Assembly (NCBI GenBank): GCA_937931165.1
Contig: CALHCI010000053.1
Coordinates: 1-64,000 of the forward strand
Origin: an uncultured Granulosicoccaceae bacterium
GTDB lineage: Bacteria; Pseudomonadota; Gammaproteobacteria; Granulosicoccales; Granulosicoccaceae
DNA: 64,000 bases
Direction of reading: 5' to 3'
The notes under the pieces were generated by a model. The model saw nothing but the letters and a program-made list of their open reading frames with translations, ran no database searches and was not told where the DNA came from. Position 1 is the stretch's first letter. Each line of letters begins with the position of its first letter. Of this stretch, positions 39,446 to 45,698 are shown in pieces. The position numbers were made by a program, and so were the translations under genes.

Positions 39446-40150
39446 ATGCAACCACTAGAAAATCTCAGTGTTTTATTAGTTGAAGACCATCAGGATCTTG
39501 CCGAGACTGTTGTCGATTTTCTTGAGTCAATGGGGGCGGTTGTCGATTTTGCTGCAGACGGAATGACTGGCCTGCATCTGGCGCGGCAACACCGCTTTGA
39601 CATCATCGTGCTCGACCTCATGCTACCCGGTATGGATGGCTTCACGTTGTGTAAAGAGATTCGCGAGACCGATAAAAACAGTACTCCGGTTATCATGATG
39701 ACTGCGCGGGATGAGCTTGGAGACAAGTTGCAGGGCTTTGAGTGTGGCGCTGATGACTATGTGGTCAAACCTTTTGACCTGCCGGAACTTGTCGCACGCA
39801 TTAAGTCACTGAGTAAACGCCACCAGGGCAGTGTGACCAGTGAAACGCTCAGCGTGGCTGATCTGATTCTCGATACCGGCACCAGAGAAGTCAGACGTAA
39901 CGGTGAGTTATTGCAGTTAACGCCTGCCGGTTTTCAGATTCTGCGAATACTGTTGAAGAAAATGCCGAACGTGGTGACCAGAGAAGAAATTGAGTCAGAA
40001 CTTTGGGGTGATGATCCGCCGGCAAGCGATACCTTGAGAAGTCAGATCTATAAGCTCCGAAAAACCCTTGATAAGCCCTATGCCGTGTCACTGTTGCATA
40101 CGGTTGCCGGGTCTGGATACCGAATCACCGAAACTGACAGTGAAGCTTGA
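39446..40150 (+). CDS. OmpR-family DNA-binding response regulator
   Basis: The 234-residue protein has a receiver domain with VEDHQDLAETV, the phosphoacceptor Asp in IIVLDLMLPGMDGF and VVKPFDLPEL, and a winged-helix DNA-binding domain (RREEIESELWGDDPPASDTLRSQIYKLRKTLDKP). Its partner is the histidine kinase on the opposite strand, whose last 63 bases overlap its own end. Regulated genes are unknown. No strong ribosome site is seen at the ATG. Confidence 0.92.
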   Translation: MQPLENLSVLLVEDHQDLAETVVDFLESMGAVVDFAADGMTGLHLARQHRFDIIVLDLMLPGMDGFTLCKEIRETDKNSTPVIMMTARDELGDKLQGFECGADDYVVKPFDLPELVARIKSLSKRHQGSVTSETLSVADLILDTGTREVRRNGELLQLTPAGFQILRILLKKMPNVVTREEIESELWGDDPPASDTLRSQIYKLRKTLDKPYAVSLLHTVAGSGYRITETDSEA

Positions 40151-41479
40151 ACCGCGACCTGGCTCGCTATCGATGGTGATGTTCCATCCATAGGTATCAC
40201 AGGTTGTTTTCACCAGTGACAAGCCCAGTCCTGAACCGCTGACTCTTTTTTCAACACGGAAAAACGGATCAAATACCTTTCTTTTGTCAGCTTCGTCGAG
40301 CCCCGGTCCGTCATCAGATATGGTAATCGAGTGATCTGTACAATAGATATCGACATTGCCTTTTTGCGTGTACAAACAGGCATTACGAAGAATGTTGCCA
40401 ATAACAATACGCAGTGAAGCTTCACTGGCATAAACCGTTAGCGGGCAGGTTTTATTGTGATTGATTGTCAGATCGTCAGTAGGTACTACCTGGCTTATCT
40501 CCAGTAATAAGTCGTCAACTACTACGGGAATGGCCACCTCGGTCAAATGCTCACCGCTTCTTTTATCGCGCGCCAGCAGCAGCAACGTGCTGGTCAGGTC
40601 AAGCATGTGTCTGCTGGCGCGCTTGATTCTTTCCACGGCTCGTGCCGGTTTCTCTTCAAGATCCAGCAGTGACAACGATGAGATCGAACCGTCTATTACT
40701 GCCAGTGGTGTTCGCAGTTCGTGCGATGCATAGCGTGCGAAGTTGCGTTCCCGTTCTATGGAATCGTTGGTTCGTTCAATAAAGTGCTGCAGTGCATCGG
40801 CCAGTACCAGTGTTTCGGAGTTGTGTGGACCGGTAAACTTGTTTAAGTCGAGTTCATTGGCATCGCGTGCACTGAAGTCGAAATTTTCAATGGTCTCTGC
40901 GAGTTTCGCAATAGGAGACACCGCACGCTTTGACAGCACATAAGTCAGGTAGGCAAGCGCGTACATCACCAGCAACACTAAAGTCAGTGGAACAACACCG
41001 AAGAAAAATCCGAGGTTGGACACCGTGTCATCCTGAAACAGCAACGTCAGTGTTTCTTCACCGCGACTGCTGACAAATGCTATCAGTTCATCATCCTGAA
41101 ACATGACGCGCTGCTGTCCCGGTGGCAAACCCTGCAGTGCAAATGGCAGTGCGCTGTTGTCGTGAGTGTGCAGATACGATTGAAGATTAAGGGTATTGGG
41201 TACTGGAAAATCCGGGTTATCCTGGCGGCGTTCCCAAAAATATTCGGCTTCTCCGCTGAGCGCCTGCTTCACCAGTATTTGTTCTGCAACCAGGCTGGCT
41301 GCCATCACACCGGTGACAGTCGCAAAACTGATCAGTGCCAACTGTAAAACAAAGGCCCTCAGCAGTCGGGATTGCACCCTCGGTTCAGCGTTGGCGTTCA
41401 TGAGTCCGTGAATCTCGTTAACGGGAAGTCTGCGCACCTTATCTAAGTGAGTGTGATCATCCTGTGACCAGTCAGTCAT
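40088..41479 (-). CDS. Sensor histidine kinase
   Basis: The 463-residue protein has a transmembrane helix near residues 47-67 (VLQLALISFATVTGVMAASL), a periplasmic sensor part (about 70-165), a second helix (about 170-195) and a HAMP region, then the H box ASHELRTPLAVIDGS, the N box NILRNACLYTQ, the G1 box ISDDGPGLDE and GSGLGLSLVK. All catalytic parts are present. It faces the response regulator and overlaps it by 63 bases at the 3' ends. It is divergent from the fasciclin gene, which could be a target. Confidence 0.92.
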   Translation of the reverse strand: MTDWSQDDHTHLDKVRRLPVNEIHGLMNANAEPRVQSRLLRAFVLQLALISFATVTGVMAASLVAEQILVKQALSGEAEYFWERRQDNPDFPVPNTLNLQSYLHTHDNSALPFALQGLPPGQQRVMFQDDELIAFVSSRGEETLTLLFQDDTVSNLGFFFGVVPLTLVLLVMYALAYLTYVLSKRAVSPIAKLAETIENFDFSARDANELDLNKFTGPHNSETLVLADALQHFIERTNDSIERERNFARYASHELRTPLAVIDGSISSLSLLDLEEKPARAVERIKRASRHMLDLTSTLLLLARDKRSGEHLTEVAIPVVVDDLLLEISQVVPTDDLTINHNKTCPLTVYASEASLRIVIGNILRNACLYTQKGNVDIYCTDHSITISDDGPGLDEADKRKVFDPFFRVEKRVSGSGLGLSLVKTTCDTYGWNITIDSEPGRGSSFTVSFGDSVSRPGNRMQQ

Positions 41480-41616
41480 CCGTTGTTACCGGACCGATGT
41501 GAACGTCAGGTGAACGGGCGAATTTTTTTGATCACAAGCCATTCACCCGGCCTGCCGTAATCTCGGCCCCACGATTCAGGATTGGACCTGAATTGAACAA
41601 ATAACAGGACACACAA

Positions 41617-43071
41617 ATGAAATTAATTCGAAACTTGGGATTGTCGCTGCTGGTTGCTGTGGGTGTTTCCGCCTGTGACAGTGATGGCGTGACCCTGAAC
41701 ACAACGGATGCCGCCGGTACATCAGGGGCTGTGGCCGGCGAAGCCACTGGCAATATCGTACAGACCGCAGTCGATGCCGGTAGCTTTAATACGCTGGCGG
41801 CGGCATTGGGTGCTACCGGGCTGGATGCAGTACTGGCGGACGAGAGCCGTCAGTTCACTGTTTTTGCACCGACTGATGACGCCTTCGAGGCACTGGGTCA
41901 GGACACTATCAATGCACTGTTGGCAGACCCGGAAGCGCTGACCGACATTCTTCTCTATCACGTGCTGGCCGATGCGAATGTAGACAGCGCCACCGCGATT
42001 TCGTTGGCAGGCACAGCAGTGCAGGCAGCCAACGAAGACGATCTGCAGATATCCCTTTCAGACGGAAACCTGTTCATTAATACGTCACAGGTGATCTCTG
42101 CTGATGTTGTCGCGACCAACGGTACCATCCACGTGATCGACACTGTGCTTTTACCACCGGCAGGTGACGACAGTGCAAACCAGGGTGATGGTGCAGGTGA
42201 GCCCGTCGAGCCACAGTTGTCTAACATTGTTGATACCGCGCTGGCAGCCGGTTCTTTTAATACACTCGCGGCAGCACTTGAGGCAACCGGGTTGGTCGGC
42301 GTGCTTGCCGATGAGAAAGCCACCTTTACTGTATTTGCGCCGACCGATGATGCGTTCGCGGCCCTTGGTCAGGACACTATAGATGCACTGCTGGCCGATC
42401 CGGATACCTTGCGCGACATCCTGCTATACCACGTAGTATCAGGACAAGCAGTGAATGCTGAAACCGCAATCAGCCTGGCCGGTTCGTCGGTCACCATGGC
42501 GAATGGCGACGATACGGAACTGTCACTTGCTGCAGGTCAGTTGTTTGTTAATGAATCCACTGTGGTTGCGACTGATGTGGCGGCGAGTAACGGCATTATT
42601 CACGTGCTGGACGCGGTACTACTGCCACCTGCCGATGAGCCTGCAGCACCGGAGCTCGACAGCATTTACAACACAGCCATTGCAGCCGGTAACTTCCACA
42701 CTCTGGTAGCTGCGTTGCAGGCGACCGGTCTTGATGGACCACTGGCTGGCGGACATGAAATCTACACCGTGTTTGCCCCGACTGATGATGCGTTTGCAGC
42801 ACTTGGCCAGGACACTATCGATGCTTTACTTGCTGATCCGGATACCCTGAAGAATATCCTGCTGTATCACGTTGTTGCTGATGCCGCTGTGGATGCCAGC
42901 GCCGCGCTTAGTCTGGCCGGAAGCAGTGTCACGATGGCTAATGGTGATGCTGTTCAGGTGAGTGTTAAAGGTGGTGAGTTGTTTATTAATGATGCCATGG
43001 TAACGGTGACTGACATCATGGCTACTAACGGCATTATTCACGTCATAGATACCGTTCTTATCCCCCACTAA
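41617..43071 (+). CDS. Lipoprotein with three fasciclin (FAS1) domains
   Basis: This 484-residue protein has a lipobox VSAC (Cys20), then three FAS1 domains at about residues 45-180, 200-340 and 345-483. Each shows FTVFAPTDDAFEALGQD-type and ILLYHVVADA-type motifs and ends in GIIHVIDTVLLP. FAS1 domains act in cell adhesion and surface binding. The copies are close at DNA level (for example the repeated GGTCAGGACACTAT segment), so they arose by internal duplication. It is likely an outer-membrane or surface lipoprotein. It is divergent from the histidine kinase and ends before a terminator. Confidence 0.92.
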   Translation: MKLIRNLGLSLLVAVGVSACDSDGVTLNTTDAAGTSGAVAGEATGNIVQTAVDAGSFNTLAAALGATGLDAVLADESRQFTVFAPTDDAFEALGQDTINALLADPEALTDILLYHVLADANVDSATAISLAGTAVQAANEDDLQISLSDGNLFINTSQVISADVVATNGTIHVIDTVLLPPAGDDSANQGDGAGEPVEPQLSNIVDTALAAGSFNTLAAALEATGLVGVLADEKATFTVFAPTDDAFAALGQDTIDALLADPDTLRDILLYHVVSGQAVNAETAISLAGSSVTMANGDDTELSLAAGQLFVNESTVVATDVAASNGIIHVLDAVLLPPADEPAAPELDSIYNTAIAAGNFHTLVAALQATGLDGPLAGGHEIYTVFAPTDDAFAALGQDTIDALLADPDTLKNILLYHVVADAAVDASAALSLAGSSVTMANGDAVQVSVKGGELFINDAMVTVTDIMATNGIIHVIDTVLIPH

Positions 43072-43946: not shown

Positions 43947-45698
43947 ATGGATAATGACACTACCACGCGATATCAGGAACTTGCGCTTTCTGACAATGAT
44001 CGTGACGAACTCAATACGGAAGTACTAAGCCGTAATCATCCGCTTGGAAACGATGTCTTTGAGTACACCAACGATCACTTTAATCCTCAACTCTACCAGT
44101 TGCTGTTTAATTTCCATCCGAGTCACTTTCAGGAAGATGAGGGTGTGCGACCGGCTATTATTCTGGGTCGCCGTGGCTCCGGGAAAAGCAGTTACCTGAA
44201 TAATCTGGCGCACAAAGAAAATATTGCCGCAATTCCTGTCAACAGCTGGGACATTGTTGATCTGATCGAACGGCAGGTAAGTGTCATCCTGCAATCGCAA
44301 GAGTCGATTGATCCGGAGAAGGTTGCCGATATCTGGCACCTGGTTTTTCTAACACTGATTGCCAGACACATTGGCAGTATGGATGCGACACGCCAATCCA
44401 TAAAAGCCATGCTGACGAATTTTCCGGTTAAAAACATCGTCTCAAAAACGGTCGAGGTGGTCTCGACTGAAGTACTGGACTGGCTGCGAATTAAACACGC
44501 GGAAAACTCCAATCATGTGTTTAATGTCAATACTATTTTTTATGCACTGAATCTGCGGGAAAATTCACTGGCCGGGTTTGAAACTGCGCTGCACAGAATA
44601 GCGCGTGACTGTGGCAAATGTATTGTGCTGATGATCGATAACCCGGAGCGGCTCAATCAGGATTTCTACGAAAAGTGGGAGAGCTCGTATATTGATTCTA
44701 ATAAAGCGCGATGGAAAACCTACTCTGGTCTGTTAACGCTGCTAGCCACTTTTAATGAAGGGAAAATTGCGTTGCAGGCGCGTTATTGTGTGCCGGCAGA
44801 ACAATATTTCTTTCTGCGTGAACGGTCCACCGCAATCCTTAAACATTTATCGAAAATTCAGGTGCTGCACTGGACCAGTGGCGAAATATTGTCCGCGCTT
44901 GCTCATAGATACATGGTGTATCTGCAGCTGCACCAGAACAATCGCAGCGGTACTCGTTACCAGAAACTCAAGAAAATAGAGATCTATACCAGAGATGGTG
45001 CTTTTGATTTTTTTCATCAGGTCTTTGAGCCAAAAATCAAAAACTCAAGAGGATATGAGGAAGACACCATCACTTATCTGCTAAGACACACTCAGTTATT
45101 GCCCAGGCAGATAATTATTTATCTAAACGAGGCTATTCATCTGGCGTTGAGTGAAGATCCAGGCTACGACCTGACGCGTCTCGATTCCCGGTTTATCAGG
45201 CAGGCTATTCATAACAAAGAGGGTTTGCTGGCTATCGAGGTTGTTGATTCCTATGCTTCGGTTTTTCCTGAAGGGAAAGATATGATGCGTGCTATCTCAA
45301 TGCTTCCTGTGCTGACTACCGTTGGTGAGATTAAAAATCACTGGGCCGAGTACGGTGCCAAAAAGGTGCTTAGCAAATTTTCGTCATTTCCAGAGGTCGT
45401 GGTGGAAGCAGACCGGTTTATCCGGTTTTTGACTGAAGTCGGTATCATTGGTCGTGCTACGTTACAGACCGAACCTGAAGCAGGGAGTTACGCCAGCGCT
45501 GCATTTGAATATACGATGCCTGAGCGGTTAATGTTCAGAGACGAAGATGCTGTCGCTGTGCATCCGCTGTTTTGTAGTCACTGTGATCAGCAGGAGTGTG
45601 CGGAGCTCGACCCTTACAAGGCGGTTTATCCTAAAGGCACAGAGCCGGATGATATTGATAAGCGCCCGTTGATGCGGAAATTCGTACCGATTAATTGA
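43947..45698 (+). CDS. Orphan P-loop ATPase (Sll1717-like) with Cys/His-rich C-terminus
   Basis: The 583-residue protein has a Walker A motif ILGRRGSGKSS (residues 72-82, Lys80) and a Walker B strand IVLMIDNPE (residues 226-234, Asp231). A middle region (about 360-400) contains LLPRQIIIYLNEAIHLA, with Arg387 as a possible sensor or finger; this is similar to the P-loop ATPase family typified by Sll1717, which often sits in variable islands and defence contexts. The C-terminus (535-556) has HPLFCSHCDQQECAELD, a possible zinc site. It is soluble and stands alone, with no nuclease or effector gene next to it. Function is unknown. Confidence 0.7.
   Translation: MDNDTTTRYQELALSDNDRDELNTEVLSRNHPLGNDVFEYTNDHFNPQLYQLLFNFHPSHFQEDEGVRPAIILGRRGSGKSSYLNNLAHKENIAAIPVNSWDIVDLIERQVSVILQSQESIDPEKVADIWHLVFLTLIARHIGSMDATRQSIKAMLTNFPVKNIVSKTVEVVSTEVLDWLRIKHAENSNHVFNVNTIFYALNLRENSLAGFETALHRIARDCGKCIVLMIDNPERLNQDFYEKWESSYIDSNKARWKTYSGLLTLLATFNEGKIALQARYCVPAEQYFFLRERSTAILKHLSKIQVLHWTSGEILSALAHRYMVYLQLHQNNRSGTRYQKLKKIEIYTRDGAFDFFHQVFEPKIKNSRGYEEDTITYLLRHTQLLPRQIIIYLNEAIHLALSEDPGYDLTRLDSRFIRQAIHNKEGLLAIEVVDSYASVFPEGKDMMRAISMLPVLTTVGEIKNHWAEYGAKKVLSKFSSFPEVVVEADRFIRFLTEVGIIGRATLQTEPEAGSYASAAFEYTMPERLMFRDEDAVAVHPLFCSHCDQQECAELDPYKAVYPKGTEPDDIDKRPLMRKFVPIN

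What the first reader, a model, noticed from the sequence alone, without database searches (positions are those of the whole stretch)
40088..40150. Two-component pair with overlapping antisense 3' ends
The response regulator (39446-40150, +) and the sensor kinase (40088-41479, -) face each other and share their last 63 bases on opposite strands. Partners usually sit head to tail in one operon. This layout means their messages can pair at the 3' ends and may balance each other, or transcription may collide.
Basis: seen in the sequence. Interest (0 to 1): 0.6.

Follow-up and report, generated by a model that had tools for sequence, protein, structure and literature searches.

The report
Convergent two-component pair, drifting antisense overlap
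A bacterial sensor and its partner regulator are encoded tail to tail on opposite DNA strands, an uncommon layout that has been inherited across several bacterial families, but the exact 63-base overlap between them drifts freely between relatives and is probably a by-product of tight packing, not a switch.

Summary
In detail: an OmpR-type response regulator (39446-40150, +) and a histidine kinase (stop at 40088, -) share their last 63 bases. The kinase start at 41479 is probably too far upstream; M27 (41401) fits relatives better. It is the longest of 48 convergent overlaps in 359 kb of the same genome.

The layout is old and uncommon. In 72 homologous pairs, 45 convergent pairs from six families and 6 secondarily separated ones fall on one side of a single branch, the 21 same-strand pairs on the other. 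The overlap is not conserved: junctions run from 69 bases shared to a 485-base gap, in all three phases. In ten close relatives the two conserved protein cores abut with 0 bases between them, and the kinase stop hops among six codons of the regulator, always opposite a Ser/Leu codon read as a stop. Regulator synonymous sites opposite the kinase tail are unconstrained. A regulatory sense-antisense function is therefore unsupported, though not excluded at RNA level.

By-catch: a GTGAAC-N5-GTGAAC repeat upstream of the adjacent fasciclin lipoprotein gene, kept even where that gene is unlinked from the pair; predicted regulator operator.

The parts
39446..40150 (+). OmpR-family response regulator (234 aa), receiver + winged-helix domains
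   Evidence: orthologs in relatives
40088..41401 (-).
40088..40150 (.). 63-nt antisense coding overlap, codons in register
40130..40150 (+). RR tail (6 aa + stop) read antisense to HK core codons 444-450; constrained on both strands (HK synonymous identity 0.718 vs 0.376)
40088..40129 (-). HK tail (13 aa + stop) read antisense to RR core codons 215-228; no detectable constraint from HK; stop is antisense of RR Ser215 TCA
41499..41515 (+). Predicted response-regulator operator, box 1: GTGAAC-GTCAG-GTGAAC (11-bp period); only exact match in the 4.86-Mb assembly
41530..41546 (-). Predicted operator, box 2 (inverted, degenerate): GTGAAT-GGCTT-GTGATC
41617..43071 (+). Probable secreted lipoprotein with three fasciclin (FAS1) domains; predicted target gene, divergent from HK
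   Evidence: lipobox-like VSAC read from the sequence

Best explanation
This is a genuine OmpR/HK two-component system whose two genes became convergent through one ancient rearrangement and have mostly stayed tail to tail since. In the ancestor of the window's clade the two conserved protein ends came to abut with no spacer. Each stop codon therefore had to be found inside the partner gene, and the 63-nt overlap is the sum of two short tails running into the neighbour. The RR tail and stop are constrained. The HK tail is not: it ends wherever the RR happens to use TTA, CTA or TCA for Leu or Ser, so overlap length drifts with synonymous changes in the RR. Regulation of the system probably lies at the other ends: phosphorylated RR binds the GTGAAC repeats in the HK-fasciclin intergenic region and controls the fasciclin lipoprotein gene and, in this layout, HK transcription, while the RR has its own promoter. 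Shown: layout, its phylogeny, abutting cores, drifting stop, absence of HK-tail constraint, conserved boxes. Inferred: RR binds the boxes; the overlap has no regulatory role.
For: Overlaps in 14 adjacent Granulosicoccaceae pairs: 63, 57, 60, 63, 45, 39, 27, 60, 69, 69, 40, 37, 14, 8 nt in three phases; two further pairs have gaps of 93 and 124. Core-to-core distance is exactly 0 nt in ten genomes. HK stops lie opposite RR codons 215, 216, 217, 221, 223 or 227, always TCA/TTA/CTA. RR synonymous identity opposite the HK tail is 0.322, against 0.374 (sd 0.054) for windows elsewhere; the same measure does detect constraint for HK codons opposite the RR tail (0.718, above all 329 control windows, max 0.565). 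In the 72-pair tree the cis rows are one side of one branch, SH-aLRT 99; HK and RR trees agree in the main groups. Box with at most 1 mismatch upstream of 18 of 19 fasciclin orthologs, linked or not, against 0.006 expected per 470-bp region; absent from three fasciclin paralogs.
Against: The pair is packed more tightly than other convergent pairs of two sampled genomes (medians -42.5 vs 62 nt in family f1; 3 vs 34.5 nt in f3), and linkage has survived down to about 50% RR / 38% HK identity, which pure drift does not readily explain. Rows are related, so those p-values are inflated. The tree root is unresolved: with long-branched outgroups it falls among convergent pairs (support 55), so the direction cis-to-convergent is the parsimonious reading, not shown.
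Confidence: 0.75

Rival explanations
1. The overlapping 3' ends are regulatory: RR and HK mRNAs pair (RNase III) or their polymerases collide, balancing the sensor:regulator ratio, as in an excludon.
For: Convergent layout kept in 45 of 51 pairs of the clade with junctions tighter than typical convergent pairs; terminator-like sites at only 2 of 45 junctions, so transcripts likely run into the partner gene; 3' overlaps of convergent mRNAs are processed by RNase III in S. aureus (review PMC7154746).
Against: Overlap length and phase not conserved; gaps of 93-485 nt; six genomes with unlinked genes keep both genes. Other tight convergent junctions also mostly lack terminators (1 of 27 has one). 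No RNA data.
Confidence: 0.15
2. Linkage without antisense function: the pair is kept adjacent because the module moves between genomes together, or because of shared regulation from the fasciclin side. (Compatible with the best explanation; it concerns why the layout persists.)
For: The gene trees group rows of genus g1 with rows of genus g4 in two separate subclades, suggesting replacement or transfer of the module; fasciclin sits on either flank of the pair.
Against: No mobile-element signature was looked for; no fasciclin gene was found near the convergent pairs of the other families examined.
Confidence: 0.3
3. Annotation or assembly artefact: HK really ends earlier, or the overlap comes from a frameshift.
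For: Convergent overlaps over 60 bp are often 3'-extension errors (124 of 178, PMC2478687).
Against: Independent genomes show the same junction with clean stops in register; no HK stop is available nearer its core in this genome.
Confidence: 0.02

Closest known systems
OmpR/PhoB-family two-component systems (closest curated models CzcR/SilR/CopR TIGR01387 for the RR and PorY/PhoR/QseC-like kinases for the HK)
   Same: Domain architecture of both proteins, scores above Pfam cut-offs
   Different: Below every curated cut-off shown for a named system; genes convergent instead of same-strand head to tail
Convergent overlapping gene pairs / excludon-type 3' overlaps (PMC7154746, PMC2478687)
   Same: Tail-to-tail genes with complementary 3' ends and no obvious intrinsic terminator
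   Different: Here the two genes are partners of one signalling pathway; no transcript evidence of mutual control; overlap length not conserved
Two-component regulation of a fasciclin protein: PrrBA and fdp of Rhodobacter sphaeroides (PMC7561615)
   Same: A two-component system controls a FAS1-domain protein
   Different: There shown by reporter genes with a global regulator; here a dedicated, often linked pair, predicted only from conserved operator-like repeats

Membership tests
OmpR/HK two-component system | Receiver + Trans_reg_C in RR; HisKA + HATPase_c in HK | tested here: met
OmpR/HK two-component system | RR and HK are cognate partners | tested here: inconclusive
   HK and RR trees agree in main groups and the genes co-occur, also when unlinked; phosphotransfer not testable
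OmpR/HK two-component system | Same-strand operon (usual, not strictly defining) | tested here: not met
Excludon / antisense-coupled gene pair | Complementary overlapping transcripts of neighbouring genes | not testable with these tools
   coding overlap implies it if both are expressed; no RNA data
Excludon / antisense-coupled gene pair | Reciprocal effect of one transcript on the other | not testable with these tools
   no expression data available
Excludon / antisense-coupled gene pair | Coding overlap conserved in length or phase (expected if the coding overlap itself is selected; not strictly defining) | tested here: not met
OmpR-type operator | Tandem direct repeat of about 6 bp, 11-bp period, upstream of target, conserved | tested here: met
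OmpR-type operator | Bound by the cognate RR | not testable with these tools
   needs footprinting or ChIP

The most novel reading that the evidence does not exclude
An ancient clade of two-component systems has replaced operon co-transcription by convergent transcription, with 3' mRNA overlap or polymerase collision setting the sensor:regulator ratio; coding overlap may vary because the transcript overlap, not the coding overlap, is what selection keeps.
Probability: 0.12. Interest if true: 0.75.

Novelty: new variant of a known kind. Interest (0 to 1): 0.45.

Why it matters
Partner sensor and regulator genes are almost always co-transcribed, which is thought to fix their ratio. A clade that has kept them convergent across several families is a natural test of whether co-transcription is needed. 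The locus also shows how a long antisense coding overlap forms and drifts when two conserved protein ends abut, and it gives a specific operator-target prediction for an uncharacterised system.

Tried and rejected
Conserved overlap length or phase as a selected feature: rejected. Constraint from the HK tail on RR codons: not found. Bidirectional intrinsic terminator at the junction: only 2 of 45 junctions have a terminator-like site and other tight convergent pairs are alike, so uninformative. Box upstream of RR as autoregulation: 1 of 25 RR upstream regions at up to 1 mismatch, so not supported. Genome-wide box count as a regulon: exact hits (18) are not clearly more frequent overall than the reversed control (about 13); only their position upstream of fasciclin is informative. 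Rooting the tree with distant outgroups: unresolved, very long branches. Literature searches found no described convergent RR/HK clade, within an open-access library only.

Full report
Observation. The response regulator (39446-40150, +) and histidine kinase (stop 40088-40090, -) are real, domain-complete genes whose last 63 bases coincide on opposite strands with codons in register. The HK start at 41479 is probably over-extended: orthologs align from about residue 27 and one close relative has an in-frame stop just upstream, so ATG at 41401 is more likely. With a simple codon-usage gene caller, 48 convergent pairs were found in 359 kb of the same genome; five overlap and this one is the longest.

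Anatomy of the overlap. The last conserved HK residue (F450, codon ending at 40130) and the last conserved RR residue (T228, codon ending at 40129) abut with no base between them. The 63 bases are the RR tail (6 aa + stop, 21 nt) running into the HK core, plus the HK tail (13 aa + stop, 42 nt) running into the RR core. The same zero spacing holds in all ten members of the window's subclade.

What drifts and what is held. Across those ten genomes the HK stop lies opposite RR codons 215, 216, 217, 221, 223 or 227, each time where the RR uses TCA, TTA or CTA for Ser or Leu. RR synonymous identity opposite the HK tail is 0.322 (13 codons), within the range of other 14-codon windows (mean 0.374, sd 0.054), so the HK tail exerts no measurable constraint. 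In contrast, HK codons 444-450, opposite the RR tail and stop, have synonymous identity 0.718 against a mean of 0.376 and a maximum of 0.565 in 329 windows (five scorable codons only). HK Ser444 is TCA in eight of ten, the complement of the RR stop; the other two read ACA and have a longer RR tail. So the RR end is held and the HK end is free.

History. In the window's family, identified as Granulosicoccaceae through the named contig L031, 16 genomes have adjacent convergent pairs with junctions from 69 nt of overlap to 124 nt of gap in all three phases; six have both genes but unlinked, in one of them on one contig 16 kb apart. A wider search added convergent pairs from five more families, including 19 genomes of one family (f3) with junctions from 6 nt overlap to 64 nt gap, and same-strand pairs from many others. 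In a tree of 72 concatenated pairs the 21 same-strand rows are separated from all convergent and split rows by one branch (SH-aLRT 99), so one change between same-strand and convergent explains the data. Distant outgroups root the tree among convergent rows with weak support (55) and extreme branch lengths, so the direction cis to convergent is parsimonious but unproven. Several HKs of family f75 and one of f168 have no RR relative within 1.5 kb (placed by HK alone), so separation has happened repeatedly.

Is the tight junction unusual? RR-HK gaps are smaller than those of other convergent pairs in G000 (median -42.5 vs 62) and in G450 of family f3 (3 vs 34.5). The RR-HK values come from related genomes, so the nominal p-values overstate the evidence. 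Terminator-like sites are rare at these junctions (2 of 45), but also at other tight convergent junctions (1 of 27).

The other end of the kinase. Between HK and a three-domain fasciclin lipoprotein gene lies GTGAACGTCAGGTGAAC (41499-41515), with a degenerate inverted copy at 41530-41546. The exact pattern occurs once in this 4.86-Mb assembly. A copy with at most one mismatch lies upstream of 18 of 19 fasciclin orthologs examined: all 11 linked ones and seven of eight unlinked ones (the eighth has two mismatches), against about 0.006 expected per 470-bp region at that stringency; three fasciclin paralogs lack it. The shuffles used for that expectation keep base composition only. In G013, where fasciclin has left the locus, both boxes remain upstream of HK. 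In G203 of another family, with a same-strand pair and an upstream fasciclin gene, a weaker two-mismatch repeat is present. An 11-bp-period direct repeat is the usual operator form for OmpR-family regulators (general knowledge). The inference is that this RR controls fasciclin and, in the window's layout, probably HK too. A fasciclin protein under two-component control is known in Rhodobacter sphaeroides (PMC7561615).

Comparison with the literature. Opposite-strand adjacency of TCS genes is uncommon: same-strand exceeds it by more than 15:1 below 200 bp, and interdependent TCS proteins encoded in trans are described as very rare (PMC3018481). Overlaps above 60 bp are mostly annotation errors, with convergent pairs the only credible exceptions (PMC2478687). 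Mutual control by overlapping transcripts is the excludon concept (PMC7154746); nothing here tests it directly.

Verdict. The proposed antisense function of the overlap is not supported by comparative evidence and awaits RNA data.

Noticed in passing
41499-41546: Paired GTGAAC-N5-GTGAAC repeats between HK and the fasciclin gene, conserved upstream of fasciclin orthologs even when unlinked; predicted RR operator.
   Followed up: yes
41401-41479: HK start codon at 41479 probably over-extended; M27 at 41401 fits orthologs.
   Followed up: partly
40130-40150: RR C-terminal tail and stop are constrained although the tail lies outside the Pfam domain; E229 and E233 largely kept in the subclade.
   Followed up: partly
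L082:6737-7644 (G016): The fasciclin gene next to RR is broken into two open frames, while an intact unlinked fasciclin gene with an exact box exists on another contig (L118).
   Followed up: partly
L066-L082 (genera g1 and g4): Two subclades of the RR/HK pair each contain members of both genera, one copy per genome: possible transfer or replacement of the whole module.
   Followed up: no
43947-45698: Sll1717-family P-loop ATPase (NF047389, above cut-off) near the locus; role unknown.
   Followed up: no
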